DNA from: Perkinsus olseni
Taxonomy: Eukaryota; Perkinsozoa; Perkinsida; Perkinsidae
Length of the DNA: 19,395 nt
Assembly: GCA_013115135.1 (NCBI GenBank)
Contig: JABANP010000750.1
Location: 1-19,395 of the forward strand
Direction of reading: 5' to 3'
The notes beneath the pieces were generated by a model that ran no database searches, was not told where the DNA came from, and saw only the letters and a list, made by a program, of their open reading frames with translations. The position numbers were made by a program, and so were the translations under genes. Of this stretch, positions 1-17,525 are shown one piece after another; position 1 is the stretch's first letter; every line of letters begins with the position of its first letter.

Positions 1-60
1 TAATCGGAAAACTGCCGCTGGTGTTCCCCCTGGAGTCGTCAGCGTGTCAGTACTAGCATC

Positions 61-1266
61 ATGCCCGTGTCAGTTCAACTTCGAGGAGCCTTCTTTTCCT
101 CGTCCCTCGGTCTGTTAACAATGCGCAGTCTTCTCTTGGCGGCCCTCACCGCCCTCGTCAAACCTGAGCCGATCACCCTTCCGTTCACGAGAGGGCGCGT
201 AGCCCTCACCCTGGACGGCCAGATACTCCACTTCTGGGTGGATTCCGGAAGTGCAAGGAGCTTCGCTTTCTACGGCCCCGTGTATGAAGAAGTATTCGGT
301 AAAGACAGCTGTGGCAGGAGCCCTTACGGATGCTATTTCTGTCCCCCGGAGAACCCTTGTGATGATATACTCTCGAGAAAGGTATGGACGGTAGCCTTGG
401 GGTCTGATGACCTGTACAAGTATGTTAAACACCCTGTGACGCTCGGCATCGGCAACTACACACTTGAGAACTTCAGTTTCGGATTAGTCGTGAAACATCC
501 CAGCGGTCACAGGACTTCCGCTGCCCTTCTGGGTCTCTCGCTCGGTCGCTCCACCATCCCAGAGACGTTCTTGAAGCAGCTCAAGAGACGAAGGGTTATC
601 GACACCCTCTCATACTCCATTCATGCTAGCGAACAAGGGCCCGCGATCACAGGCAAGCTAACCCTTGACGATTCAGAGACGGCCAAAGCGCCGTACATAC
701 CCTTCAGCAGGGACCTGGTTCTTGGTCACGCGAAAGTGGCTCTTCCTGCAGGCCCACTGGTGCTCTTGGACTCTCTTGGAAGGCAACTGAATGCGCGACG
801 TAGAGGCGATGAAATGCAGCCAGCTCTTGTCGACTCGGGGGCTTCGTCCGTATACGTCTCTGAGAGGGACTTTGACAAGATTATTGATGTTACGTGGAGT
901 GCGATGTGCAGAGAAAACGCACGGGCGAGCATCAAAAAGAAAAAGCAGCTGCAAGAAGAGGACGGCTTGCTCCGTATGGTAAGGATGCAGGCTCTTCCCT
1001 ATTTACCAACACTCGGCTACAAAATCGGAGATCCGCCTAATACTATCGACATCAGAATAGAGCCGAGGCATTATGTCCACTCCTGTGACGCTGTGTGGTG
1101 CCGAATGAATATCCGTCCGAGGAACCTCAGAACTACTTCCTTCGGGCACCCATTTTTCCGGGCATACAACGTAAAGTTCGACCTCGATAACAAGCGGCTG
1201 TCCTTCATCAGTAACAGCGAGGGAAACTCGACGCCTGCTGCTGTCGTAGAGTCTACACACCTTTGA
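61..1266 (+). CDS. Pepsin-family (A1-like) aspartic protease, probably secreted
   Basis: Intronless 401-aa ORF. Both catalytic loops of a bilobal aspartic protease are visible: FWVDSGSA at residues 58-65 and ALVDSGASSVYV at 255-266, each DSG in place of the commoner DTG. A LGLSLG stretch (157-162) and a C-terminal FGHPFFRAYNVKFDLD (361-376) match the conserved end of the pepsin fold. Seven or so cysteines (84, 91, 94, 100, 283, 342, 347) could form disulphides, and NYT/NFS near 132-139 are possible N-glycosylation sites. Met21 (position 121) starts MRSLLLAALTALV, a good signal peptide, so 121 is an alternative and perhaps better start than 61. A lysine-rich insert (IKKKKQ, 291-296) lies in the C lobe. 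Expected role is peptide hydrolysis in the secretory path or outside the cell; substrate unknown. The family call is firm, the subtype is not. Confidence 0.87.
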   Translation: MPVSVQLRGAFFSSSLGLLTMRSLLLAALTALVKPEPITLPFTRGRVALTLDGQILHFWVDSGSARSFAFYGPVYEEVFGKDSCGRSPYGCYFCPPENPCDDILSRKVWTVALGSDDLYKYVKHPVTLGIGNYTLENFSFGLVVKHPSGHRTSAALLGLSLGRSTIPETFLKQLKRRRVIDTLSYSIHASEQGPAITGKLTLDDSETAKAPYIPFSRDLVLGHAKVALPAGPLVLLDSLGRQLNARRRGDEMQPALVDSGASSVYVSERDFDKIIDVTWSAMCRENARASIKKKKQLQEEDGLLRMVRMQALPYLPTLGYKIGDPPNTIDIRIEPRHYVHSCDAVWCRMNIRPRNLRTTSFGHPFFRAYNVKFDLDNKRLSFISNSEGNSTPAAVVESTHL

Positions 1267-3743: not shown

Positions 3744-4497
3744 CACCCAGAATAAACAACTTCCTATGATCTCGGCTGTAGCTGTATCCGTTCTCACTCA
3801 CTGCAGCGGCACTTGCGACCGCCCACTCAAGTTCTGCTCCTTTTTGTGAGCAACCGACGACAGCTACTTCCAGGTATATGAGTGGTTTATTTCTGACTAT
3901 CTCCGGTCAACACAACAACTTCTTGCCTTCTTATCATGTTTCCCATATTTCTTCTCTCTTAACCTATCGGAAAGAGTTAGCTGTCCGAATCGCCCTCGAG
4001 GAAGTTCTGGCACAGCTCCAATTCATCCGTATTAGCGCATCGTACCATCGGAATACAGGTCGCTTGAAATGGAGCTTCAACACGCCTTGACTCCAACAAC
4101 TTTTCTTCTGCGTTGCTGTCTTGCAGGAGGTGATGCCTCATGGCAGTACTTCTGAACCGCAGACAAATGAGAGGGGAAATTGTTGTGTTGACTCAGTATC
4201 ATAGAGGACTCCTCGACGAGGAGGCACATCACACCCGTACCGTGAACCTCGTCCTATGGAGACAGCACCATGCACGCTTCGCAGACCTCTTCGGCTTCTG
4301 AAAATCTCAGACATAACGCGTCTAAAAACTGGTCTATACATCACTCGTCAAGGCGGGTGTATCCCAACTGAGGCAGTGCCAATTCGGACAGTGGTCAACT
4401 CGTACAAGGTATCAACCCGTACACCACAGATTCGGACACTGCCAACTGAGTCAGTGGCAGGTCGGACAAAAACGGCTGGGCGACCTGGACCAATTCA
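3744..4497. other. Intergenic region with short repeated words
   Basis: No convincing gene. The right part (4363-4480) contains the word CAACTGAGNCAGTG at 4365 and 4443, mixed with related TTCGGACAGTG, TTCGGACACTG and CAACTCGTACA words. The same words reappear after the candidate DNA element (CAACTGAGACAGTGGC at 5236-5251). Either the element sits inside an older repeat or these words are its outer arms. Confidence 0.45.
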
Positions 4498-5179
4498 GGG
4501 GCCTATTTCACAAGAAAGGCTCCTCACGGAGCACCTTACGGATAGGTGCAAGGAGCAAGGAGCCTTACGACGTAAGGAGACTTCTTTCACAAGAAATCGC
4601 TCCTTGCACCTAATGCACCTATCCGTAAGGTGCACCTTATGAAGGGCACCTTACGGTGTCTATCAAGCAAAATACAGCAGTGAAGACAAGCAGCTTTGAA
4701 AAAAGATTCAGTATAACTAGGAGATGTCTTGCTATCTTTGCATATCTCAAGGAAAACGGCGATTGAAAGTCGAAGAATGAGGTAAGTCCGAAATGTCCGA
4801 TAAAGTTCGTGGAGCGAGAATTGAACTTTCTCAGGGAATACCGATGCGGGTCAAGCCATGAGCGGAGCGAAATTCGCTGAAATCCGGTAAGGTGACGACG
4901 GATATCCCCATAAGCAACCCCCGGAGGTACCCTATGGCACCTTGCGTAAGGTCCGTAAGGAGGCATGCCAAGAGGCCTTTTGTGAAATAGCCTTACGTTA
5001 GGAGCGCTTCCTTATCCTTCCTTATGTAAGGAGCCTTACGGTAAGGTGCCTTATGGTGAGGAGCCTCATGGCACCTTACCACCTTACCTCGAATCGTAAG
5101 GATGTGAAAGTGACTTACGAGAAAACCGTAAGGTACCTTACAATTTTTGCCCCTTATGAGCCCTTGTGAAATAGGCCCC
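4498..5179. mobile_element. Candidate non-autonomous DNA transposon (MITE-like) with terminal inverted repeats
   Basis: The left end GGGGCCTATTTCACAAG (4498-4514) is perfectly inverted at 5163-5179, giving 17-bp terminal inverted repeats; a few bases further in, GGCTC and its complement GAGCC extend the match with a small gap. The 682-bp interior has no coding potential. It is full of CCTTACG/CGTAAGG and GGTGC/GCACC words in both orientations, including a 20-bp foldback listed separately and an internal inverted copy of the end sequence near 4976-4992. No clean target-site duplication is visible; the flanks share only GGACCA (4487-4492 and 5185-5190). The superfamily cannot be assigned. It could instead be a foldback element or a structured repeat cluster. 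Confidence 0.5.
4531..4633. repeat. Foldback (hairpin) inside the candidate DNA element
   Basis: A 20-bp arm at 4531-4550 (GCACCTTACGGATAGGTGCA) is perfectly complementary to 4614-4633. A second arm, GGTGCAAGGAGC (4545-4556), matches 4599-4610 inverted. Together they can form a long branched hairpin, with TTTCACAAGAAA, a piece of the terminal repeat, in the loop region (4585-4596). Confidence 0.7.
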
Positions 5180-5639
5180 AGACAGGACCACTTGAGACAG
5201 TGACACTTCGCTCGCCACTACAACTCGTACAGTGCCAACTGAGACAGTGGCTTCGCACTCAGAAACTCAATGCATATTCTGTGAGGAGGGAGAAACTTTA
5301 CCGAACCAGTCCCTGATGACAGTTATTCTAGCAGTTCGGATTTCGGGTGACCGAGCGCCCAAATTCGGCCTGCTTGCTGATTTACCCGGTGGGGCACGTG
5401 CGGAACCTCTTCTAGGGGCTGAAGGCTTCACCGCAGGCTCTGAATAATCGAGAATCGAGTTGTGTGAAATACTAGCCAGTTCTTGGCTTTCCCTCATGTG
5501 CTTGATTTCAGCACTAAGTAGCTCGAACAAGGGGCCCTCTGGACCAGAGGCTCTGGTGACCATCACGAGGTCCAGTTCTCTTAGCACGGGCGCTGGGGCC
5601 CATGATGAACGTCTTCTATCATAGTTGATTGTTTGCGAA
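5180..5639. other. Intergenic region upstream of the CCCH gene
   Basis: About 460 bases. The left 70 bases hold the CAGTG-type words that also flank the left side of the candidate DNA element. The rest has only overlapping short ORFs on both strands with no recognisable domain. It should include the promoter and 5' UTR of the zinc-finger gene, but no specific element could be identified. Confidence 0.4.
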
Positions 5640-6488
5640 ATGCCGCCTCCCTGTCGCTACCACGAAGCCGGTGAGCGTTGTCCCCAGGGCCTTCGTTGCA
5701 ACTACTATCACAATCCCCGTCGAGGGGCGGCCTTGATCCGTTGCCAGTTCTACGACCATGGCCACTGCAGGTTCGGTCTTTCATGCCAATTTCTGCACTC
5801 CGATAAGAAGCCGGTTTGCCACTTCTTTTCCCGCGGTCAGTGTCGCAATGGTGCTGCATGTCCGTTCTCTCACGATGGTCCTTCTGGCACTGAGGCGTCG
5901 GTCTGTCACTTTTTCCTCAAGGGCGAGTGCAGGAATGGTGAGAGCTGCCGGTTCTTGCATCAGCAGTCCGACGACCAGCAGACTCGCAGTCGATATAATG
6001 AGACGATAGACTCTCCGAAGAAGCTTGCTATGTTCCTGGAGCGCCTTAGTCTCCACAAAGGGGACAAATTCTGCTTGGATGCTCTTCTTGAGCAGAAGGG
6101 GTCTCTCAGGAACTTCATCCGCGACTTGGGCGTTTGTGAGCTCGCGAAGCTTTTCGCGCTTCTGGGTCGTTGCGATGAGGTCGAGGAGAAGCAGAAGTAT
6201 GAAGAGCTCATCGGCGCGTTGAGTACAAGCTTGATATTCAGTGCCCGGCGTTATATATACAACATCAGCCGAGAGGCTCAGTTGCTTGTCTGCACGAAGG
6301 TCCTGGTCGATGCTGCCAGACTGAACCGCATTTTTGCCAGACAAGTGCCTGTGATTCGACTGGTGAAGAAGTCGAGGGATCTAGAGGTCAAGAACGAGAC
6401 GCTCGAGGGGTTGTTGATGAGGTTGAAGATCCACAAGAATAGTTGTCGTCTAAGCCGGGTCCTCGGAACTCCACAAAAGGGCGGCTGA
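5640..6488 (+). CDS. Four-finger CCCH zinc-finger protein, probable RNA-binding
   Basis: The frame is open from 5625, but the first ATG is at 5640 (GAAATGCC context), giving 282 aa. Four CCCH fingers follow in series, numbered from that Met: C5-x8-C14-x5-C20-x3-H24; C35-x7-C43-x5-C49-x3-H53; C60-x7-C68-x5-C74-x3-H78; C89-x7-C97-x5-C103-x3-H107. Spacings match the C-x7/8-C-x5-C-x3-H class that binds single-stranded RNA. Finger linkers are short (10-15 residues). Residues of about 125-270 are charged and probably mostly helical (LAMFLERLSLHKGDKFCLDALL..., ELAKLFALLGRCDEVEEKQKYEELI), a domain I do not recognise. No RING or RRM is seen, which argues against a makorin or a U2AF35-like protein. A role in mRNA processing, export or decay fits the fingers, but the target is unknown. 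Confidence 0.85.
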   Translation: MPPPCRYHEAGERCPQGLRCNYYHNPRRGAALIRCQFYDHGHCRFGLSCQFLHSDKKPVCHFFSRGQCRNGAACPFSHDGPSGTEASVCHFFLKGECRNGESCRFLHQQSDDQQTRSRYNETIDSPKKLAMFLERLSLHKGDKFCLDALLEQKGSLRNFIRDLGVCELAKLFALLGRCDEVEEKQKYEELIGALSTSLIFSARRYIYNISREAQLLVCTKVLVDAARLNRIFARQVPVIRLVKKSRDLEVKNETLEGLLMRLKIHKNSCRLSRVLGTPQKGG

Positions 6489-7228
6489 GATCATGGCTGC
6501 ACTTTCGTTTGCCTTTGCCTCTCGAGTAGGGACTTGACTTTTCTCATGATTACTGTATTGATGTGTGCTGCTGCTGCTGATGGTTAGAATTCTGTGCTCC
6601 TGCCTTCATGGGGTCGGTGAGGCCCGCTCGTCAGTCGATGGCAGTCTTTACTTTTTCGTAAGGGATTGCGTGGAGTCCAGCTCAGTGAGGGCTTGGCTTC
6701 GGTTCGCCTCCTGAATGGCCCTCGAGTGACCGCAAACATCCGAGAAGGATTTTGTCAAGGGTTTGTGAGTCCATAGTCCAACACCGGTACCGGCTTGGAT
6801 TTCCATCTCGGGGGGGGCCTCCTGCACAGACGTGAAGGGATTGTCGGATGGTTCGTCGAAAGGCGTGTGTGCTGATTGATGAAACGGCTGGTCGGAGGTT
6901 CGAACCTGAGCTGCTGCATTTTCACGCGTTTACTGATCTTAAATCGCGGACCGTTGAGTCCCTATTTCCTATAGGGTTCGGGAGACAATCATCATTGGAT
7001 GAGATTCTAGACGATGAACATCTGCTCCTGTTCTCGAACGCATCCATGAGATCTGCACGCACGCACATGGTGCCCCTGCTGATAGTCTTGTGGAACTGGC
7101 TACAGTAGCATTAGCAGTTTATTACTAGTCCAGTTGCAAACGTTTTTCGTAGCTTCTGCTCGTCTCTGTGGGATTCCTTTCGAACTCCGGTACCCTTCAA
7201 TAACAGGTGATATTGATAGTGTCCAGTA
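6489..7228. other. Intergenic region, at most one weak ORF
   Basis: Between the CCCH gene and the kinase start. An 86-codon plus-strand ORF at 6848-7108 begins MVRRKACVLIDE and has no recognisable motif; I do not call it a gene. A run of eight G occurs near 6812. The kinase promoter should lie in the last few hundred bases; no clear element was identified. Confidence 0.4.
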
Positions 7229-7501
7229 ATGGCATCAGGATTCAAGCACATCCTTGGTGATCGTGAGAATGATCAACACGCGGAGAATCGCCACGGCATC
7301 TCCCCGGTGGACAAGGCCCTGGTTATGGAGAAGGCGCCGATATTCTCGGTAGGTTTGACTCTTAATAGGGAGCAGCCTAGTTGTGATGAGTGATGTGAAT
7401 CTTGAATCCGCTAATGCTGTCGCCGGGAATTGAACCGGCGACCTCGAGTGATTGAGTATGGCGGTGATTTCTGCGGTCAGCGGAACGACATCGATATCGG
7501 A

Positions 7502-7832
7502 ATAAAACGCACCCCTAACGTTTCGCGTCGAACCATAGAGAACAATGGGAAGCGCGGAGCGAAGCGAAACGCCGACTCCTTGCGGCCTACAGCCCCAGCC
7601 CGAGGCCGGGACTGTTAGACCTCGAGAGTCGCGAGGTGCAACCTGCAAAACTCCAAACCCGCGGCCCGGACGAGCATGCACGGAAGCCGGAAGGCCTACC
7701 CGAAACCCAAACGCTGGGCGTAGGCCTTGTGACTAACCGCGACATTGTCGCCGAGCCCGCGAGCCGGACAGTGGTTGCCGACGGGTTCCTTCGAACCCTC
7801 GTCGCCCGCGAACAACGATGCGGGCCTAGGAA
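7502..7832 (-). repeat. B2 repeat: 3' terminus of the retroelement
   Basis: 331 bp, identical by eye to 8059-8389. Its outer edge (7502) begins ATAAAACGC and touches kinase exon 2 sequence. No function beyond element end and recombination site can be read. Confidence 0.9.
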
Positions 7833-7899
7833 TGAATCCAGCGGCTAGGCAGATCAGCTAGCTCACACCCCGGGCAGGGAGGGATCGGGAAAAAAAAGA

Positions 7900-8060
7900 G
7901 AAACATCGACCAACCAACCTGAGGTGGCCCCAGCTAGCGCACCGCGCAGCTGATCGATTTCGGGCGAGCGCTGTGAAGGGCGCAGCTTGGAGTCCGCCGC
8001 ATACTTGGAGTGCATTTTACCGTGGTGGACTCCCTCCTGCGGAGGAAGTTCACCTTACAT
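7900..8060 (-). repeat. A2 repeat: internal copy of the 5' terminus
   Basis: 161 bp, identical by eye to 13454-13614. It shares the AT at 8059-8060 with the B1 repeat; this is the internal B1/A2 junction that mimics a joined circle. A poly-A run (7890-7897, followed by GAG) borders it, while the A1 copy has a 13-A run at 13441-13453, so the tract differs between copies. Confidence 0.9.
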
Positions 8061-8389
8061 AAAACGCACCCCTAACGTTTCGCGTCGAACCATAGAGAAC
8101 AATGGGAAGCGCGGAGCGAAGCGAAACGCCGACTCCTTGCGGCCTACAGCCCCAGCCCGAGGCCGGGACTGTTAGACCTCGAGAGTCGCGAGGTGCAACC
8201 TGCAAAACTCCAAACCCGCGGCCCGGACGAGCATGCACGGAAGCCGGAAGGCCTACCCGAAACCCAAACGCTGGGCGTAGGCCTTGTGACTAACCGCGAC
8301 ATTGTCGCCGAGCCCGCGAGCCGGACAGTGGTTGCCGACGGGTTCCTTCGAACCCTCGTCGCCCGCGAACAACGATGCGGGCCTAGGAA
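8059..8389 (-). repeat. B1 repeat: internal copy of the 3' terminus
   Basis: 331 bp, identical by eye to 7502-7832. The end at 8389 is exactly where the YR frame leaves recognisable recombinase sequence, so the last 45 residues of that ORF are read from repeat DNA. Confidence 0.9.
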
Positions 8390-9407
8390 GGCCTATGTTC
8401 GTGGCTCTCAGTTTCAAGAGCTCGGAAGGGACCCTCAGGAGGAAGGCGTAGGCCAGAATGCAGCCCAGGGCCAGGAGCGCTTTGCCCTCTGACAGACTCG
8501 TCGAAACCACATCATGGAGGAGCGCCGGGCCGATCCGAGGCCGAAAAGGCGGCGGGTTATTCAAGAAGCGTTTTAGACCGTTGAGGCTCTCGCGGATGAT
8601 AGGCGAATCCCACTTTGTATCCAGATTCAGCCAGGTGTGCCACTTCCTCAAATGTGAAACATAGTTCTTCGCTGTATCAACATTCCGAAACCCTGATACC
8701 CAGAGCAGCACGTCACTCTCTCTGGCCGGCAAGATCCTCGGAGAGCTCTTCTCGGGAAGAATCACTGTTAGGGCGGCCGCGAAGCGGGCGTAGGAACGGA
8801 AGCCCGTGACGTACTGTCTGAAAGATGTTGCCGATAGCGACCAGAAGCGAATGCCCCTCGAGAACTCGCGTAAAGCCGCCGCTTCCACATAGGGTCTGCC
8901 CGAGACATCCGGACCCAACACGCTGAGCACGCGGCTCGGCATGACCCGGCCTCCTATAGAATCGAAAGGGTCGAGCGATTTGTTATAGACAGATCCTACG
9001 ACAGATTTAATGGTTTCATAGATGAACCCTTCGAAACGGAAGCGTCCGCACCGTAGCTCATTCAAAATGTCGCTTATCGCCTCCCTGTACTTCCGTGAGC
9101 GGACCAGGCCGAGGGCCGCCACTCCCTGATCCACCGGGACCAGGCGCCACTCGCATATACCCGCTCTCAGGAGCCTCACGCAGACATTCACGAACTCCAT
9201 AGCCCCAAGGCCGTACAAGGATGAGCAGTGCTCATTCTTGCTCATTGAGCACCCGGGACTCCCTGACCTCTCCTTGCCGGCGGTGGAAGTCTTCGGCATG
9301 AACGAGAAAAGAGATAAGAGAACCTGACCAGGAGTCCTGATCCTGGACTCGCCGTAGTCGGCCAGCACCTCCGACCTCGTTCGAAAAAGCGACGAGCCGG
9401 AGTCCCA
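8253..9407 (-). CDS. Tyrosine recombinase (YR) of the retroelement, C-terminally truncated
   Basis: Open frame of 384 codons from 9407. No ATG precedes the conserved part closely; the frame has a stop in GTTTAG and opens right after it, so I read GCATTGGGTGTTTAG as a splice acceptor (exon TGG GAC TCC...), in phase with the gag donor at 11833/11832. Numbered from the GTG at 9368: an N-terminal extension, then a SAM-like core-binding region at about 175-265 (SATSFRQYVTGFRSYARFAAAL, AKNYVSHLRKWHTWL), then box A AYAFLLRVPSELLKLR with catalytic Arg312. After residue 326 the frame enters repeat B1 and reads non-homologous residues to a stop. The catalytic Lys, HxxR and nucleophilic Tyr, normally within the next 120-150 residues, are missing. 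YR would join circular element DNA to the target; this copy should be inactive. Confidence 0.78.
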   Translation of the reverse strand, partial: WDSGSSLFRTRSEVLADYGESRIRTPGQVLLSLFSFMPKTSTAGKERSGSPGCSMSKNEHCSSLYGLGAMEFVNVCVRLLRAGICEWRLVPVDQGVAALGLVRSRKYREAISDILNELRCGRFRFEGFIYETIKSVVGSVYNKSLDPFDSIGGRVMPSRVLSVLGPDVSGRPYVEAAALREFSRGIRFWSLSATSFRQYVTGFRSYARFAAALTVILPEKSSPRILPARESDVLLWVSGFRNVDTAKNYVSHLRKWHTWLNLDTKWDSPIIRESLNGLKRFLNNPPPFRPRIGPALLHDVVSTSLSEGKALLALGCILAYAFLLRVPSELLKLRATNIGLPRPASLFAGDEGSKEPVGNHCPARGLGDNVAVSHKAYAQRLGFG

Positions 9408-9476
9408 CTAAACACCCAATGCCCCAGTGGGAAGACGGAAACGAGCTTGCGAGAACATGTCTGAGACCCCAGCCGA

Positions 9477-11684
9477 TCAGCTGAAAAACGAGAGGAATTT
9501 TGGCTTCTTCCTGCTAAAGGAGAGAGTGACGGAGTCGAAGACGTGACGGCTTGGCCCGTCTGCCGGATTGGACTTAGATGGAACCCTTGCTATCCAGACT
9601 TTCAGCTGTAGTTGGTTCACCTTGTTCCAGAACCACTGGATCATTTGGTTGGCCAAAGGGCACGAAGAGGACCCTCTCACCAATGCGAATTCAACTGCCG
9701 TGTTATCCACGAAGACTGTCAACCATCTCCCCCTTATATAGTGGCCGAAGGTCTCCAGGCCCACGAGGACTGCGTACATTTCTAGCACGTTGATATCGTT
9801 ACGACCACCTAAGACGCCCTGTATTTGCTCCTCGTCGACAGTCGAAGAAAAGTAGACCGGCTTATGGAAATCCTGAGCATCAAGGACTGCGCCGATGCCC
9901 CCGCCTGAGCAGGCGTCAGTGTACATCACCGCATTCGGCCCTACGCTGTCGGACGATAAGACTAGGGGGACTTTCCTTGCATTATCGATGCTTGAGATCA
10001 ACTTGGAGAGATTAGAGAGCGCGTTCTTGGCCTCTCGCCATAACCTGTCGTGGGCTCGCCACGACCAATGCCCTACGAAGTTATGAAGTGCCCTGAGGAA
10101 GGGCCTCGATGCCGTAGAGTCCAAGGCACCGCTGGCGAAAGTCAGCTTTCCAATGAGCTTATGGGCCTGCGATGTTGGGAGAGAATCCTTGTCAAGAACT
10201 TCCTTGATGGAAGAGATGATTCGCTCGCTCTTGTCCTTAGGGACCGATAGTTCCAGATAGTCGCCGATCACGGCGATGTCCAGGCCTAGGACGGGAATCT
10301 TCCGAGTGGGAGCCAAACCCTTACCGTCGTTGAGGCGCCATCCCAACACCTTGTGCAACCAAATCCATGCCCTGTAGGCTGAGTCCGCAGTGTCAGAGCG
10401 TTCCACGCCGAAATAATCGTCAAGGTAATTTATAACGGGAATGGCTAGAACAACCCTTCCGATATGCGCCAAGGCTTGGCTCACTCTGCAATAATTGATT
10501 ACCGAACTGGAGGCCCCGAAGGGCTGGGCCAGATGATAAAATCCGAAGACCGAACCGGTGTCTGGATCCTTGAGGAGGATGACCGTGTATTTCCTTGAAT
10601 CGACAGAGCAGGGCACCTGGCGGTACGCGGCGGCGTGATCCGACTTCCACCATTTAATATCCTTCGTGGACAAAGTAGAGCAATATAGACGAGCGGTAGC
10701 CAAGGCTGCCTCCGGGGAGGGGAGGGATACTTTATTGTGAAAAGCCATTGTACGGTTCACATTTGACCTGCGAAAATCATCACAGGGTCTTATTTTGGAG
10801 CCTTGATCTACCCCAAACCTGCGAGAGGCCACAAAAGAACCACCAAAGATAGACTGCAGCTGCTCGAGCGAGTGAGGTCCCGCCATCGTGCCATCGCGGA
10901 CCTCCTCCAGAGCCTTCTTCCATAGTACACCATCGAATGGACAGGGTTCCCGGCTCACTCTCTCCGCCAGCGCGTGAGCGTTGGAGACTCCATCGGAGAG
11001 AAGCTCCGACGCCGACATGACTGCGACCCGCTTCGCCGTATCTGGGTTCTCTCGAAAAACGCCGTCGGCCACCTTAAACGAGCCGACCAAGTCCAGCCCC
11101 CTCGCCAGGTCAGCTGGGAGAGACACATCAGGGTAGCCCGACGCTTCAAGCATACGTTGAAAAAGAGGCAGGTTTAAGCGCGACGTCAATTGCTCTATCT
11201 CACCGTCAGCCGGAGTAAAGTCATCCCGCATTTGAGTGTGGCAGTTCTGCCAGTATTCCATAACCTTTTCCCTTTGGGTAATAACATTTTCCGGGCCGGC
11301 CTCGGCCAGACGCCGTTGACAGTGAATACTCGCCACTATTGAAATTGGGAGCCCCGGCGCGTCGCTCAGGGGATGACGGGATGCGAGAGCCTGTTTTCTG
11401 TGATCTGACGGGGCAAGATGATCCAGAGAAGCTTGCAACTCCACGTCCCGGAAGGCCTTAGGCTGAACGCCAGCGCCCACCTTGGACGCCTTGGGAATAA
11501 AATAAAGGTTCCGAGAACTCTCCTTGTCCTTTGATGACTCCTCCAACTCCGGGAGAGCCAGACACGCCTGCCTATCAGAGGGACAGGCAAGCTGCGCCAG
11601 GTTACCGGCTGCGCGCGGGAGTGCTCCGACGACCGTGAGATCGCCACGTGTAGCGAGCGAGTTCGTGAGGGCAGGGGACTCCCA
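9477..11684 (-). CDS. Reverse transcriptase-RNase H of the retroelement (Pol exon)
   Basis: 735 codons from the predicted acceptor TTCTTGTGTTCTCAG / TGGGAG. The frame can be read six codons further up to a TAA, but only a TTG start is available there, so the exon reading is preferred. Numbered from the TTG at 11702: about 250 residues of uncharacterised N-terminal region; RT fingers/palm with RPCDDFRRSN (305-314); motif A KSDHAAAYRQVP with Asp355; QPFGASSSV (393-401); YLDDYFG with the catalytic YxDD at 426-429; GLDIAV (473-478). RNase H follows, with Asp596 (MYTDACSGGG), Glu641 (NVLEMYAV), Asp666 (VFVDNTAVEF) and Asp715 (SNPADGPSR). The SNPADxxSR ending and the short FGAS-type RT are typical of DIRS-order elements. 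All catalytic residues are present, so this part looks intact. It should copy element RNA, probably as a Gag-RT fusion of about 1,092 aa. Confidence 0.9.
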   Translation of the reverse strand, partial: WESPALTNSLATRGDLTVVGALPRAAGNLAQLACPSDRQACLALPELEESSKDKESSRNLYFIPKASKVGAGVQPKAFRDVELQASLDHLAPSDHRKQALASRHPLSDAPGLPISIVASIHCQRRLAEAGPENVITQREKVMEYWQNCHTQMRDDFTPADGEIEQLTSRLNLPLFQRMLEASGYPDVSLPADLARGLDLVGSFKVADGVFRENPDTAKRVAVMSASELLSDGVSNAHALAERVSREPCPFDGVLWKKALEEVRDGTMAGPHSLEQLQSIFGGSFVASRRFGVDQGSKIRPCDDFRRSNVNRTMAFHNKVSLPSPEAALATARLYCSTLSTKDIKWWKSDHAAAYRQVPCSVDSRKYTVILLKDPDTGSVFGFYHLAQPFGASSSVINYCRVSQALAHIGRVVLAIPVINYLDDYFGVERSDTADSAYRAWIWLHKVLGWRLNDGKGLAPTRKIPVLGLDIAVIGDYLELSVPKDKSERIISSIKEVLDKDSLPTSQAHKLIGKLTFASGALDSTASRPFLRALHNFVGHWSWRAHDRLWREAKNALSNLSKLISSIDNARKVPLVLSSDSVGPNAVMYTDACSGGGIGAVLDAQDFHKPVYFSSTVDEEQIQGVLGGRNDINVLEMYAVLVGLETFGHYIRGRWLTVFVDNTAVEFALVRGSSSCPLANQMIQWFWNKVNQLQLKVWIARVPSKSNPADGPSRHVFDSVTLSFSRKKPKFLSFFS

Positions 11685-11832
11685 CTGAGAACACAAGAAC
11701 AATCCCTTACGACAGAGACGTACAAGAACAGAGAGGGAAAGTTAACCGAGACGGCTCGAACGACACTGACTGATGTCGGCCGACGGAAGGAATGGCAGAG
11801 CCTTGTATGGAGAATCAAGCACTACTGTTTAC
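11685..11832 (-). other. Proposed alternative intron joining Gag to RT
   Basis: Donor GAT/GTAAAC (exon ends at 11833) and acceptor TTGTTCTTGTGTTCTCAG/TGG (exon starts at 11684), 148 nt, phase 0 on both sides. If retained, Gag ends at its own stop at 11815; if removed, Gag residue 357 runs straight into the RT frame. This would replace ribosomal frameshifting as the way to set the Gag to Pol ratio. It is a prediction from splice-site quality and frame. Confidence 0.6.
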
Positions 11833-12967
11833 ATCAGCGGACTTCCCATCGGAGGCCTTTTCCTTCTTGGAATCTTGACCGGCCTTGGCCTTCTTGGACT
11901 TGTGCTTGTCCTCGTAGGAGCCAGAAGCCTTCCCGCCGGACACCTTGATCCATTTACCATTGATCTTTTTCCACACCTCCTCGGCATCGTCGGAGTAGGA
12001 TCTCTTTTTGCCACGGAAGTTCTGATGGTTGCCCTGACCGTAGTTGTTCTTCTGGTGAGAGTCGGCGGAAGCCTTGCCGATCAGGAGAATCAGCCTATTG
12101 GCATCAAAACGAGCCAGGCCAGAGCATGCCTTCCTCACACTGACGTAGTTCTTATCATCCATCGACCATGACATCGACATCGAGCAGCCAGCCTCCTTGC
12201 GCATCTGGGCATCGTACTGGGCTGCGACCAACGTACCAGCCATCCGGCCTGTCAAGGGAGACTTGTAACCGGCGGCAGAGATACAGTGGTAGACGTGAGA
12301 GTACACGTCGCCGAACGCTGCGCCTTCCAAAAGGGCTACCCACAGCCAGGAGAGAAGAGCGCGTATGAAGCCACCAAAGGACTGATCCTTCTGATCATCA
12401 CTGAAGTACCAGATCTCCTTCTCGAAGAGACTGAGGGAGTTCCTATCAACTTCATCAAGGGCGGTCTGACGAATCAGGGATTTGTCCATAGAGGACATGT
12501 CGATCTTCTCGAGCCTTTTGCTTAGAGATGGCCACTGCGAAGATTTATAGGCCTTGTCGTCACCCTTCGACTTGGCCAGCAACTTGGCCAGACCATCACC
12601 AATCGCCTTCATTATAGCCAACTCGGAGGGAGAAGCCGTGGCTGCCGACGACCTTGGGCTGTCGGCACGAGCCGGGTCATCCTCCTTGCCGGAGGCCTCA
12701 TCGTCACATAAGGACTCGAACTCCTTCTCGAGACGGCTCTTGCCCTTACTGCCTGAGGAAGGGAGAGTGGCAAACACGAATCGTGTTACACGATGAGAGG
12801 GAAGGGAAAATATTACCTTCCTCCTCCAAGGACTCTTGTTCCCTGTCATCATCTTCCTCTTCATCACCCTCATGATCGGTGATGCGGGACTCCTTGTCAT
12901 CATCGACCCTCTCATTGTCGTCTCCGACGACGGCGGGGGTCTGCTCGGCCTTCTTCGGAGGAGCCAT
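11815..12967 (-). CDS. Gag-like protein of the retroelement, one intron
   Basis: Two exons: 12967-12817 and 12752-11815, with a 64-nt GTAATA...TTCCTCAG intron (12753-12816); the spliced product is 362 aa. Exon 1 encodes MAPPKKAEQTP then a very acidic segment (EGDEEEDDDREQESLEEE). Exon 2 continues GSKGKSRLEKEFESL, a central mostly helical region (QWPSLSKRLEKIDMSS ... FGGFIRALLSWLWVALLEGAAFGDVY), and a basic C-terminus (KKRSYSDDAEEVWKKING, KHKSKKAKAGQDSKKEK). No CCHC knuckle is present, as in many DIRS-order Gag proteins. An unspliced frame extends to 13035, but its arginine/proline-rich N-terminus looks like an out-of-frame reading of the acidic exon. Four codons before the stop lies GAT/GTAAAC, the proposed donor for fusion to RT or YR. 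The role as a nucleocapsid protein is inferred from position and charge. Confidence 0.75.
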
Positions 12968-13035
12968 AGGAAGACAACTGCAAGGGCAGAACGATCAATC
13001 GCGGAGACGGGCAGATCCCGACGAGCAGAACGCAA

Positions 13036-13453
13036 CAGCTTGTCATAAACAAGCTAGATCCCCGAGGGAGCAGAGCTCACGAAGAGCCAGATAAAAGGGT
13101 GGCCGCGAAACCGCAGTCTGACGTCCGTGCGCGACGCACGGACAGCTTGCCAGGCCGAGCCTGGTGTAAAACGTCTAGAAGTTCTAGACTAGAAATAAAA
13201 GATGGCCTGGTCGACGAGCCCTCGATGACAACTCCAGGAGGGGGGGGGTGCGACATGCAGGAAAACGGGCCTTGAAAAATATGCCAACTCGCGGTGCTGC
13301 TAGAGGATCCTGACACATGGAACCACAGAGAGAGCCTCAGGGAAGACGGCACGAGTTGACTAGACGGACACGACCCGTAGCCCGTACGGGAGAGCTAGCA
13401 GCACGTAAAACCACCGAAGCGAACGCGGTTAAGTCGCACCAAAAAAAAAAAAA
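13036..13453 (-). other. Leader (5' untranslated) region of the retroelement with two hairpins
   Basis: Between repeat A1 and gag. It contains a perfect 9-bp inverted repeat with a 3-nt loop, GTCCGTGCG (13123-13131) and CGCACGGAC (13135-13143). A second one, TCTAGAA/TTCTAGA (13174-13188), has a 1-nt centre. A run of nine G lies near 13240 and a 13-A run at 13441-13453 (T on the element's coding strand). It is a likely place for promoter, packaging or translation signals; none could be named. Confidence 0.5.
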
Positions 13454-13614
13454 GAAACATCGACCAACCAACCTGAGGTGGCCCCAGCTAGCGCACCGCG
13501 CAGCTGATCGATTTCGGGCGAGCGCTGTGAAGGGCGCAGCTTGGAGTCCGCCGCATACTTGGAGTGCATTTTACCGTGGTGGACTCCCTCCTGCGGAGGA
13601 AGTTCACCTTACAT
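13454..13614 (-). repeat. A1 repeat: 5' terminus of the retroelement
   Basis: 161 bp, identical by eye to 7900-8060. Its outer edge ends CTTACAT and is directly followed by GAAGCTCGGG of the kinase glycine loop, so the element boundary is known to the base apart from the shared AT. Confidence 0.9.
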
Positions 13615-14174
13615 GAAGCTCGGGAGCGGGAAGTTCGGCAATGTCTACGTCGCGAGGTGAGTTTCGTGGCGCGCGACATCTCCCCATCCGAACCGGTATT
13701 CAGGGAAAGAAGAAGTCACTTCGTATTCGCCCTCAAAGTGCTTCACAAGAAGCAGCTTATTAAGGTAGGGTAATACCCTAAGGGTATACTAGCGGAGTAT
13801 CTTAGGTTGATGCTTGTCTTTTAAGCATGGGGTTGAACACCAACTTCGACGAGAGATCGAGATTCAGTCCCACTTGCGTCATGTAAATATCTTACGGTGC
13901 GTTATGAGAATCTTTCGACCTCGTGGCTAAAGATTCCCCTCAGTTTGTTCAACTACTTCTGGGATGAGAAATGCGTCTACCTCATGCTCGAGATGGCTCC
14001 TGGTGGAGAGCTGTATAAGATGCTCACCGAGAAGGTCAGGAGTATCTTGCGCACAGCGAAGAATTTTGATATCTTTTCAGACCCGCTTTTCGGAAGCTAG
14101 AAGCGCGTGGTATATGCGGCAAATGGTGCTAGCGATTCAGTATTGTCACAAGAAGCATGTCATCCACCGGGATA

Positions 14175-15983
14175 TCAAACCAGAGAATATCCTGATCGGC
14201 GGGATTGCCTCAGTGGGGTCATAGGTGCGGTGTTCTCTTCCAAAACGGGTAAGGTCTTCCACACAAGAGGTAGCACTTTTTGTTCTCCTATCTCGGACAC
14301 TAGGTGCACTTCTTTCTTCTGCTGGTGCTCCGGCTTCACCTTGAACACTCTCGTTCTACCCGGTTCCAGAGTGATATCAAAAGTGCGTGTCTCGCCGGAG
14401 TAAGAAAAGAAAATCGTTTTCGACTTCGAAGAATTGTTAGTTAAACGCAGCCCGCGTATACCACCCTTTTCGACAAGCCGCGCAGACACTGCTCCCAGAA
14501 GGACTTCAGCGCCCTGAAATACAGGATTTCCAAGCTGTGGAAACCGAAGTTCGGCTACCGAACTGTCGGCTAAGGAATCCAGGACTACCTCGAATTCTGG
14601 AGTTGAGCCGTCCGTGCCAGAAGAGTTGTCGTCCCTCGGTTTATGGCTGGAAGTATTAGCCGTCCTCGGTTTCTTGCCAGGGATCGCAGTAGTATCACGA
14701 AACTCATCATTGTGCCAGGCTATTTTGCCAGAGGTACTACTTCTCTTGTTATTGTTAGAAGGAACGTCGCCGGTTTTGAGATGGTTCGATTCCTTGAAAC
14801 CAGTTTTAGGGTTTTTATCAGGAGTTTTTTTGCTCGTCCGTTTGGGCCCGGACGTATCCGCATACGATGACTTGTCGGCACAACGGTCATCGTTCCTTTT
14901 TCCTGATATCGAGGAGATGGTCGGTGATGTCGCGGCCGGCTGGTCGCACTCTGCTGACCGATGTGTCATCACCTGACAGGCTGACAATGACTTAGTCCTC
15001 TAGGCTGGCGAGAATTCACCCGTTCTCTGCACTCCGCAATGCTCGCACCCGCATTTTCCTTCTCTTTGAGGAGTTGTCGCAAGAAGGCGTTATGCCTCTC
15101 TTGTTTCCCCAAGCTTTGCTCCAAGTCCTTGGCGTATTCATCGTCTCTGGGTGAAAATAATTCTATGAAGTCTATGAGCAATTTTTGCATCAAACTTCAG
15201 AGACCGGTATTACACTTCTCTCCGAGCGCGGTACTTCTGTTCGGACTGCTCCAACTCCCGCTCGAGTTGCTGGAACTCATCGACGACTGTCGCCATTTCC
15301 GCAGATCTCCTAGTACGTACCCCTCAATGCCAAAAGTATCAAAAGTTTTCGACTTACTGTCGCAATTCCTCGTTGCACTGCGTCAAATCTGTTCTAGCCT
15401 TATCTAAATCCGTCTGTAGCCTAATGCAATAAGTCACCCGAACTATTGAAACCCATTTATTCCTTTACTTGCTTATAACTGCGTCCTTACTGGATGCCTC
15501 CGATGTCATCGATGCAAGCTGGGCCTTCAAATGAGCTACCTGGAAAGAATCGAAATGACCATCCATTATGACCTCGTTTCAGCCGGGAACGTTTACCTCG
15601 CTGCTCACGGCCGGGTCAGTCTGAGTCATGACATGGCGACCTGACCATCTCACAGGTTCCCCACTTGTTGTGGCTTCCTAAGATATTACACAACAGAAAT
15701 ATTCGATAACAGGCCCTGGAGATAGAACTCGGGGCGGTTACATTTTACCTTCCGTTCAATGATTACCTCCTTAGCCAACTTCGAGGTGAGCGCTTTCACC
15801 TGTCCAGTCAACTGGTCAATTTGATCGCGTAGAGTGTTTTCAACTTCGGCATGGTGAAGAACCTACGAGAGAGAATGAAAACAGTCACAACCCACAAATC
15901 CCCACAGGCTGTCGGCGACCGTAGATTACCCATTTATCTCGGGTCTGCTTTACCCGTTGACGACGGTTGGGTACGTTCTTCAT
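14175..15983 (-). CDS. Coiled-coil protein with basic linker and beta-rich tail (lamin-like layout); function unproven
   Basis: Eight predicted exons on the minus strand: 15983-15930, 15862-15749, 15677-15597, 15539-15469, 15420-15358, 15309-15235, 15194-15020 and 14972-14175. All introns are GT-AG (40-71 nt), total 1,431 nt, 476 aa, with phases consistent at each junction. The start [15 protein letters not shown] is a short basic head. Exons 2-7 encode a heptad-rich rod ([77 protein letters not shown]), with one non-coiled break in exon 3. The last exon begins with a Ser/Lys-rich linker holding possible nuclear localisation signals ([19 protein letters not shown]). A domain rich in predicted strands follows ([33 protein letters not shown]). 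This order resembles nuclear lamins, with a much shorter rod and no visible CaaX end. The final 12 residues are antisense to the kinase fragment, so the natural C-terminus may be lost. Other nuclear or cytoskeletal coiled-coil proteins remain possible. Confidence 0.7.
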
Positions 15984-16380
15984 GACAAGGGAGAAGCTAT
16001 TAATAATAGCCTATTATAGTTAGGTCAAAACTCAGTGAAGACCACATGACAGCGCACGCCGCGTGCGGCACGCGCGACCAGGCAGTGCCAGTGAAGCTTT
16101 ACGGACGGTACGGACTGCACTGCACACTCGAACACAACGAACGAAGATGCTTTTTGTCATGGAAGCTTTCCATTGAAGCGAACGAAACCCGGTAGCGGCC
16201 ACCGATGAGTAAAATTCCACAACCAAACTCACAACATCCGCCACAGAGCAAACGCTGCTATCTAAGGACTTGAAAATTCAGTTACAAATTTCAATTTTTA
16301 AATGACTTTAATTTCAGGCGATTAATCATCGTCTGACCAACGATTTAAACGACTTTTTAATTTTTATTTCAGGATTTGAA
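15984..16380. other. Intergenic region upstream of the coiled-coil gene
   Basis: No gene seen. It should contain the promoter of the minus-strand coiled-coil gene near 15990-16060. A GC-rich stretch (CGCACGCCGCGTGCGGCACGCGCG, 16052-16075) is partly self-complementary. From about 16270 the sequence becomes AT-rich and leads into the tandem array. Confidence 0.45.
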
Positions 16381-17525
16381 GTCAAGGCCAGTCACAGACG
16401 AGAAGCTCGTGAAAACCTATTGTTATAAACTTGAGGTCAGTCACAGAGGAAAGGCTCTTGAAAATCTATCAGAAAAATCAGCTATAAACTTGAGGCCAGT
16501 CACAAAGGAAAGGCTCTCAGATATTTATTAGTAAGATAAACTATCAAGTCAAGGCCAGTCACAGAGGAAAGGCTCTCGGGGATTTATTACAAAAAAATTC
16601 ACTGTAAAGTAAAGGCCAGTCACAGAGGAAAGGCTCTTGAAAATCTATAAAAAAATTCAATTATAAACTTGAGACCAGTCACAGAGGAAAGGCTCTCAGA
16701 AATTTATAATAAAATAAACTATAAAGTCAAGGCCAGTCACAGAGGAAAGGCTCTTGAAAATCTATCAGAAAAATCAGCTATAAACTTGAGGCCAGTCACA
16801 AAGGAAAGGCTCTCAGATATTTATCAGTAAGATAAACTATCAAGTCAAGGCCAGTCACAGAGGAAAGGCTCTCGGGGATTTATTACAAAATTTAACTGTA
16901 ACGTCAAGGCCAGTCACAGAGGAAAGGCTCTTGAAAATCTATAAAAAAATTCAATTATAAACTTGAGACCAGTCACAGAGGAAAGGCTCTCAGAAATTTA
17001 TTAATAAAATAAACTATAAAGTCAAGGCCAGTCACAGAGGAAAGGCTCTTGAGAATTCATCAAAAATAGTATAATAAACTTGAGGCCAGTCACAGAGGAA
17101 AGGCTCTCGGGGATTTATTACAAAATTTAACTATAAAGTCAAGGCCAGTCACAGAGGAAAGGCTCTTGAAAATTCATCAAAAATAGTATAATAAACTTGA
17201 GACCAGTCACAGAGGAAAGGCTCTCAGAAATTTATAATAAAATAAACTATAAAGTCAAGGCCAGTCACAGAGGAAAGGCTCTTGAAAATTTATTAAAAAA
17301 TTCAATTATAAACTTGAGACCAGTCACAGAGGAGAGGCTCTCAGAAAGTTATTAATAAAATAAACTATAAAGTCAAGGCCAGTCACAGAGGAGAGGCTCT
17401 CAGAAAGTTATTAATAAAATAAACTATAAAGTCAAGGCCAGTCACAGAGGAAAGGCTCTTAAGAATTTATTTAAAAAACTAATCATGAACTTGAGGCCAG
17501 TGACAGAGGAAAGGCTCTTAGGTAA
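16381..17525. repeat. Minisatellite: about 20 units of about 59 bp with a conserved hairpin core
   Basis: The core GGCCAGTCACAGAGGAAAGGCTCT recurs every 55-63 bp, separated by 30-37 bp of AT-rich sequence. Two unit types largely alternate, giving a period of about 118 bp: type 1 is GTCAAGGCC...GGCTCTTGA, type 2 is CTTGAGGCC...GGCTCTCAG. In both the flanking arms are complementary: TCAAG with CTTGA, or TGAG with CTCA, extended by GCC with GGC around one bulged T. The first unit (near 16388) and the last (near 17497) are the most diverged, as usual at array edges. Spacers are similar to each other, so this is a tandem repeat and not a CRISPR array. Confidence 0.93.

What the first reader, a model, noticed from the sequence alone, without database searches (positions are those of the whole stretch)
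7502..13614. Complete split-direct-repeat YR retrotransposon whose empty target can be reconstructed
A1-ORFs-B1-A2-B2 is present with both repeat pairs apparently 100% identical (161 and 331 bp). AT is found at both ends and at the B1/A2 junction. Deleting one AT-to-AT segment restores a continuous kinase exon reading DIDIG-MKLGSGKFG. Such direct proof of the insertion mechanism (circle plus AT-core recombination) is rarely visible in one locus. The lack of target duplication and the repeat layout match Ngaro/PAT-like elements; a member in this kind of protist may be undescribed.
Basis: partly seen in the sequence, partly recalled or inferred. Interest (0 to 1): 0.88.

Follow-up and report, generated by a model that had tools for sequence, protein, structure and literature searches.

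The report
Split-repeat recombinase retrotransposon with empty sites
A retrotransposon that likely inserts as a DNA circle with the help of a tyrosine recombinase sits inside a copy of an Aurora-like kinase gene of the mollusc parasite Perkinsus olseni; the same genome still holds the uninterrupted site, and four sister insertions with their own empty sites show no fixed shared target letters, while this copy has lost the catalytic end of its own recombinase.

Summary
On the minus strand 7502-13614 reads A1-ORFs-B1-A2-B2; A is exact over 162 bp, B over 331 bp, with AT at both ends and at the B1/A2 junction. The empty site exists uninterrupted on contig C501 of the same genome, joined exactly at the AT. 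The interrupted gene is an Aurora-like kinase copy; the host is Perkinsus olseni.

Two parts of the interpretation change. The copy is not complete: its recombinase ORF matches a protein of another P. olseni strain at 336 of 337 residues, then lacks the Lys, His-x-x-Arg and Tyr region and runs into B1. And AT is not shown to be a required core: five of seven insertions tested have a full empty site here; all five are exact, without duplication or loss, and share 2, 4, 0, 0 and 0 bp with the target, as chance would give (P 0.15).

New: 8 of 9 elements carry a C-run motif just before B2. The structure is Ngaro/VIPER-like; no tree was made.

The parts
7502..7832 (-). B2, terminal split direct repeat (331 bp); [quoted passage not shown]
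   Evidence: exact match to 8059-8389
7833..7871 (-). 39 bases between the C-run motif and B2; inferred to be the original 5' part of B, kept here and lost from B1
   Evidence: in relatives B2 starts at or within a few bases of the C-runs; inference
7872..7889 (-). C-run motif of the A2-B2 boundary (reads GGGCAGGGAGGGATCGGG on +), next to a T tract
   Evidence: 8 of 9 elements have it within 80 nt of B2; 0 of 2000 shuffles reach 8
7899..8060 (-). A2, internal split direct repeat (162 bp)
   Evidence: exact match to 13453-13614
8059..8060 (.). B1/A2 junction, AT shared with both ends
8059..8389 (-). B1, internal split direct repeat (331 bp), 5' end lost in the deletion (inferred)
   Evidence: boundary compared with relatives
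8253..9407 (-). tyrosine recombinase ORF, truncated: recombinase sequence to about 8394, then a tail read through B1; keeps the first conserved Arg only
   Evidence: 336 of 337 identical to P0010 residues 29-365, which continues to 515; alignments
9477..11741 (-). reverse transcriptase / RNase H ORF, 754 aa, open
   Evidence: Pfam RT_RNaseH 1.9e-5; invariant columns including D441 D442 in alignment A1
11815..13053 (-). ORF1, gag-like by position, 412 aa stop to stop
   Evidence: no Pfam family above cut-off; joined to the RT frame in the gene model P0001 of another strain
13453..13614 (-). A1, terminal split direct repeat; its outer end is the 5' end of the element
7480..7503 (+). part of the Aurora-like kinase exon left of the element
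   Evidence: joined flanks and C501; Aurora similarity
13613..14199 (+). Aurora-like kinase, part right of the element; second break at 14197-14199
   Evidence: 97% to C501 over 587 bp with 3 mismatches and a gap; breakpoint

Best explanation
The stretch 7502-13614 is a split-direct-repeat tyrosine-recombinase retrotransposon (A1-ORFs-B1-A2-B2 on the minus strand) that lies in a copy of an Aurora-like kinase gene without target duplication and likely arrived as a DNA circle joined to the target by a tyrosine recombinase, and its own recombinase gene lacks the catalytic C-terminal part. Shown: the repeats, the ORFs, the exact empty site, the truncation, and sister insertions with exact empty sites. 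Inferred: RNA copying; use of B1/A2 as the template from which both ends are remade; a circle with a B-A joint; recombination there. Because the target and the B-A joint share 2, 4, 0, 0 and 0 bp in five insertions, the exchange most likely tolerates a non-identical crossover region, as in Tn916-like systems (comparison recalled), instead of needing an AT core. The recombinase deletion most likely arose in this copy after insertion, by end joining (about 60%, inferred). A protein with the full recombinase, nearly identical where both exist, is recorded from another strain.
For: Repeats exact. Empty site on C501. Four more insertions with exact empty sites: C188 on C682 and C945; C381 on C127; C16 at C16:3366; C401 in a unit of its own tandem array. 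RT/RNase H. In an alignment of P0010 and seven recombinases of this genome, Arg, Lys, His-x-x-Arg and Tyr are invariant, and a profile of the eight finds Cre at E 3.9e-5. Full-length match in another strain. Of 12 RT- or recombinase-bearing loci examined (chosen among the best of 66 RT matches), 7 have both repeat pairs (C724, C16, C643, C188, C381, C401, C556), 2 only the B pair (C268, C693) and 3 none (C287, C140, C389) within the stretch read.
Against: No circle, RNA or movement was observed. C501 and C724 are not simple alleles: binned identity is 0.88-0.99 over the coding stretch at 5400-6600, 0.65-0.76 at 6600-7200, 0.94-0.95 at 7200-7500 and 0.98-1.00 right of the element, and the blocks lie in another order, so the empty site is a paralogue or rearranged haplotype. 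C556 gave no empty site and C643 only its right side. A second related site for C16, on C17, aligns less cleanly (86%, not exact at the joint) and is not counted. The C268 right end lacks bases that its internal junction has, so ends are not always alike. B-like pieces on C374 and C165 begin at the T of the AT, without the A. In C381 the recombinase frame also runs 92 bp into B1, though after its His-x-x-Arg, so overlap of frame and B1 alone is not a sign of damage.
Confidence: 0.85

Rival explanations
1. The recombinase deletion came first, and this copy was inserted in trans by the recombinase of another element, as a non-autonomous member.
For: The A and B copies are identical, so the insertion looks young. 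The ends, which are what a recombinase would need, are intact. Another strain has a nearly identical recombinase with the catalytic part.
Against: Only one copy of this family was found in the assembly; among the other recombinase matches (22 listed, B2 itself aside) none is above 44% identical. No second copy with the same deletion was seen. About seven extra bases at the deletion joint resemble a nearby TAGGCC (read by eye), which fits end joining at any time.
Confidence: 0.35
2. Integration needs an identical AT core between circle and target.
For: AT at both ends, at the B1/A2 junction and in the empty site. DIRS1-like elements are described as recombining at a 3-bp junction identical to the target (PMC3266345, passage). 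The C188 insertion shares GTAT at all junctions, and C556 shows TGGC at its three joints, with an extra base at one.
Against: Three of five resolved insertions share no base with the target. Two or more shared bases occur by chance with P 0.16; a total of six or more over five has P 0.15. These are different families, so this one could still have its own rule.
Confidence: 0.2
3. The locus is an assembly artefact or a product of ordinary recombination.
For: C724 is a short contig and its kinase copy is broken a second time at 14197-14199; the region is rearranged relative to C501.
Against: The joints match the element's own internal junction to the base, the empty site is exact, and four other loci show the same anatomy. 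Another strain's proteins agree with the coding parts.
Confidence: 0.04

Closest known systems
Ngaro retrotransposons (for example in Cafeteria burkhardae, PMC8547959; passages read)
   Same: A1-ORFs-B1A2B2 layout; gag-like ORF1, RT/RNase H, tyrosine recombinase; GC-rich relative to the surroundings, about 6 kb; deletion variants occur
   Different: Different host phylum; no tree placement done here; the C-run motif at the A2-B2 boundary was not in the passages read; the deletion variants described there lack ORF1, not the recombinase end
SymbioDIRS elements of dinoflagellates (PMC5890265; passages read)
   Same: A-coding-B-A-B repeats, RT/RNase H and a separate tyrosine recombinase, in the alveolates
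   Different: Part of them carry a cytosine methyltransferase in the RT ORF; no methyltransferase was found in the proteins scanned here
VIPER of kinetoplastids (PMC6681497; passages read)
   Same: Split direct repeats A1 ... B1 A2 B2, sometimes identical; RNase H said to resemble that of hepadnaviruses (a weak, sub-threshold hit of that kind here: PF00336 E 0.022)
   Different: Kinetoplastid hosts; relationship not tested in a tree
PAT elements (PMC4157794; passages read)
   Same: Split direct repeats
   Different: Defined with a methyltransferase domain, not found here

Membership tests
Ngaro | split direct repeats A1-ORFs-B1-A2-B2 with the internal repeats downstream of the recombinase | tested here: met
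   for this copy (B1 begins inside the truncated recombinase ORF); in 7 of 8 relatives with a located B1 it follows the recombinase frame by 33-279 bp, in C381 it overlaps by 92 bp
Ngaro | RT/RNase H and tyrosine recombinase present | tested here: met
   recombinase present but without catalytic C-terminal part in this copy, with it in another strain and in relatives
Ngaro | no methyltransferase domain | tested here: met
   no methyltransferase family in Pfam scans of this copy's three ORFs, RT and recombinase ORFs of two relatives (C16, C643) and one P. chesapeaki protein
Ngaro | no target site duplication | tested here: met
   five exact empty sites
Ngaro | RT or recombinase falls in the Ngaro clade | not testable with these tools
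   RT searches (7998 candidates scored each) returned Perkinsus proteins, three with no organism given and, in one, a plant hit at E 1e-4; no labelled reference elements held
PAT | methyltransferase domain together with split direct repeats | tested here: not met
DIRS1-like | inverted terminal repeats with internal complementary region | tested here: not met
   no inverted repeat pair of 30 nt or more in the window; shorter ones not searched
VIPER | RT/RNase H in the VIPER clade | not testable with these tools
   no labelled references; layout alone does not separate it from Ngaro

The most novel reading that the evidence does not exclude
In Perkinsus, split-direct-repeat retrotransposons integrate by a tyrosine recombinase at sites with no identity to the circle joint, leaving a perfectly clean insertion; and a conserved C-run block at the A2-B2 boundary, able to form a G-quadruplex on the other strand, marks where the RNA or cDNA ends and sets the limits of the A and B repeats.
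Probability: 0.4. Interest if true: 0.72.

Novelty: new member of a known kind. Interest (0 to 1): 0.52.

Why it matters
How DIRS-order retrotransposons choose and enter their target rests mostly on models. Here one protist genome offers five insertions together with their own empty sites, so the expected marks of a tyrosine recombinase (no duplication, no loss, no fixed core) can be read directly. The conserved C-run block gives a concrete sequence to test in the still unproven copying model. The deletion copy, against a full-length relative in another strain, is a natural case of a retrotransposon losing its own integration enzyme.

Tried and rejected
Rejected: that a missing recombinase C-terminus hides elsewhere in the element (tblastn of relatives' C-terminal parts against the window; in the output shown, which was cut, the only convincing hits end at the truncation and hits in B were weak). 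Rejected: a methyltransferase. Rejected: that C374 and C165 are further copies of this element: only about 160 bp of the outer end of B match, at 84% and 75%, and their own flanks look alike by eye. Tried without result: empty site for C556; empty site of C643 beyond its right side; a hairpin in the spacer (z-score 0.33); placement of the RT by protein search; similarity of the target to the A end (P 0.21), with a weak one to the B end (P 0.017; four insertions, C16 carrying most of it; C401 was not in this test); papers on a G-quadruplex in such elements (one review listed, not read). Not examined: the hit on C155 for the C188 flank, the second element copy near C381:32344 as an insertion of its own, 12 of the 15 places listed for the C16 flank (looked at: its own place, C16:3366 and one on C17), and most of the 66 RT matches.
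Full report
What was checked. Exact extension gives two B copies of 331 bp (7502-7832, 8059-8389) and two A copies of 162 bp (7899-8060, 13453-13614), all identical, with AT shared by 7502-7503, 8059-8060 and 13613-13614. In the sense of the ORFs, which lie on the minus strand, the order is A1-ORF1-RT/RNase H-recombinase-B1-A2-B2. There is no inverted repeat pair of 30 nt or more in the window. With no difference in 493 compared positions, divergence between the copies is below about 0.6% (rule of three, my arithmetic).

Host. The window is the whole contig C724 of a 61.5 Mb assembly in 968 contigs. Two proteins named Perkinsus olseni with prefix FOZ60 sit on contigs of 43,383 and 40,300 bases, the lengths of C389 and C427 of this assembly. 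The host is therefore taken as P. olseni, a perkinsozoan alveolate; that it is a parasite of molluscs is recalled.

The empty site. The left flank matches C501 up to the AT, and the right flank matches C501 from the AT on; the two meet on C501 with only the AT in common, and the reading frame there is continuous. C501 continues to the DFG motif (motif name recalled). C724 does not: at 14197-14199 it passes to a sequence shared with C585. Identity to C501 is uneven and the blocks are in another order, so C501 is a paralogue or rearranged haplotype, not a plain allele. Removing the insert in thought therefore restores the exon and not the gene.

The copy is broken. The 384-residue recombinase ORF aligns with relatives up to the first conserved Arg region and then departs. 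P0010, from the strain with prefix FOZ62, is identical at 336 of 337 residues and continues for 150 more. In an alignment of P0010 with seven recombinases of this genome, Arg352, Lys380, His451, Arg454 and Tyr488 of P0010 are invariant (their catalytic roles are recalled, His-X-X-Arg and Tyr also in PMC8547959); the window's ORF stops matching at residue 365 and so keeps only the first. A profile of the eight finds Cre (E 3.9e-5, over a short stretch); the Pfam phage integrase family is hit below its cut-off in two relatives and in P0010, and not at all in the window's ORF. The frame enters B1. In 7 of 8 relatives with a located B1 that repeat starts 33-279 bp after the recombinase frame; in C381 the frame runs 92 bp into it, beyond its His-x-x-Arg. 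Here B2 is preceded by 39 bases that B1 lacks, lying after the C-runs where relatives begin B; so the deletion seems to have taken the start of B1 as well (inference). The remaining genes look open: RT/RNase H of 754 residues with the invariant residues of alignment A1, and ORF1 of 412 residues. Among the other recombinase matches in the assembly, B2 itself aside, none is above 44% identical.

Sister elements. I fetched 13 further contig regions. Of 12 loci with RT or recombinase, the window included, 7 show both repeat pairs, 2 only B, 3 none in the stretch read. They were chosen among the best of 66 RT matches. C643 begins within A1 at its contig end. C374 and C165 hold only a B-like end.

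Empty sites of sister elements. I searched flanks of seven insertions (C724; C188: 49; C381: 50; C16: 51; C556: 54; C401: 77; C643: 78). Five gave full empty sites. C188: two sites, on C682 and C945, sharing GTAT. C381: C127, no shared base. C16: C16:3366, no shared base; a related site on C17 was less clean and is not counted. C401: a unit of an array with about 812-bp steps, no shared base. C643 gave its right side only (C279); there the target has ATTTTT next to the joint where the element's end has ATTTTTG. C556 gave none. In all five the insertion is exact: no base of the target is doubled or lost. Shared bases are 2, 4, 0, 0, 0. For random blunt joints, two or more shared bases arise with P 0.16 in one insertion and six or more in five with P 0.15. 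A required identical core is therefore not supported across these families; for this family alone, one insertion cannot decide. The C556 element, without an empty site, shows TGGC at its three joints with an extra base at one.

How it most likely works. From the layout and the published model for such elements (PMC3266345 passages, for DIRS1; split-repeat layout in PMC8547959 and PMC6681497, passages), the RNA is copied, the ends are remade from B1/A2, a circle with a B-A joint forms, and a recombinase joins it to the target. All these steps are inferred. What the sequence shows is their expected footprint. A crossover region that need not be identical would explain the joints with no shared base; tyrosine recombinases typically have a 6-8 bp segment between their two binding arms (PMC3212892 passage). 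The comparison with Tn916 is recalled.

A conserved block at the A2-B2 boundary. In 8 of 9 elements with a located B2 start, three or four runs of C stand within 80 nt before B2; C188 is the exception. In 6 of the 9 a T run of four or more lies just upstream. No shuffle of 2000 reached 8 (1813 had none), about 1% of windows elsewhere in the elements have the motif, and the same pattern of G occurs in none of the nine elements on the ORF strand. I chose the motif after seeing it in several elements, and C643 and C268 are close relatives, so the count overstates independence. On the other strand the block could form a G-quadruplex (inferred, not tested). Since it lies where the A and B repeats end, it may mark transcript or cDNA ends.

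Family. Split direct repeats without a methyltransferase fit Ngaro or VIPER by the published criteria (PMC4157794 passages). The tree test could not be run. RT searches found relatives in P. chesapeaki (45% over 89%), P. marinus (61% over 21%) and three proteins with no organism given at 26-28%.

What is in print. Searches for Perkinsus with DIRS, Ngaro or retrotransposon terms and for dinoflagellate DIRS listed no title or abstract start describing these P. olseni elements; the library holds open-licence papers only, and of the papers listed there I saw passages of PMC3266345 and PMC5890265 and only listings of the rest. Perkinsus marinus is tabled as a DIRS1-like host in PMC3266345.

Verdict. 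A real, young-looking, incomplete member of a known kind of retrotransposon, with unusually direct evidence of clean integration in several families of one protist.

Noticed in passing
window 4354-5306: A second, nested insertion with its own empty site: several genomic copies and C501 have the sequence of 4354-4498 followed directly by that of 5179-5306 with about 3 bp in common, while 4495-5182 alone is a dispersed repeat of about 680 bp; it looks like a small non-autonomous transposon with a short target duplication.
   Followed up: no
window 14197-14199: The kinase copy is joined here to a sequence shared with C585, with three bases (CGG) covered by both matches; C501 carries the kinase on.
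   Followed up: partly
window 16379-17520: Tandem repeat array with a step of about 59 bp, also present on C585.
   Followed up: no
window 11685-11832 and 12753-12816, minus strand: Probable introns with GT...AG ends. The first fits the gene model of another strain, which joins ORF1 to the RT frame (P0001), so a Gag-Pol fusion might be made by splicing; the second, near the start of ORF1, was picked by eye.
   Followed up: partly
L048 (C268:53500-60500): The right end of this element lacks bases that its internal B1/A2 junction has, although it is a close relative of C643, whose right end keeps them.
   Followed up: partly
L047, L056, L072 (C401:112052-138683): A split-repeat element inserted in one unit of a host tandem array with about 812-bp steps.
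   Followed up: yes
P0011 (strain with prefix FOZ63): A gene model that ends in a peptide read from the B repeat, identical over 11% of the window's recombinase ORF; sequence of this family is thus present in a third strain.
   Followed up: no
window 4-1263 and 5625-6485: Aspartyl protease ORF (Pfam Asp 3.4e-7) and CCCH zinc-finger ORF (Pfam 5.8e-20) left of the element.
   Followed up: no
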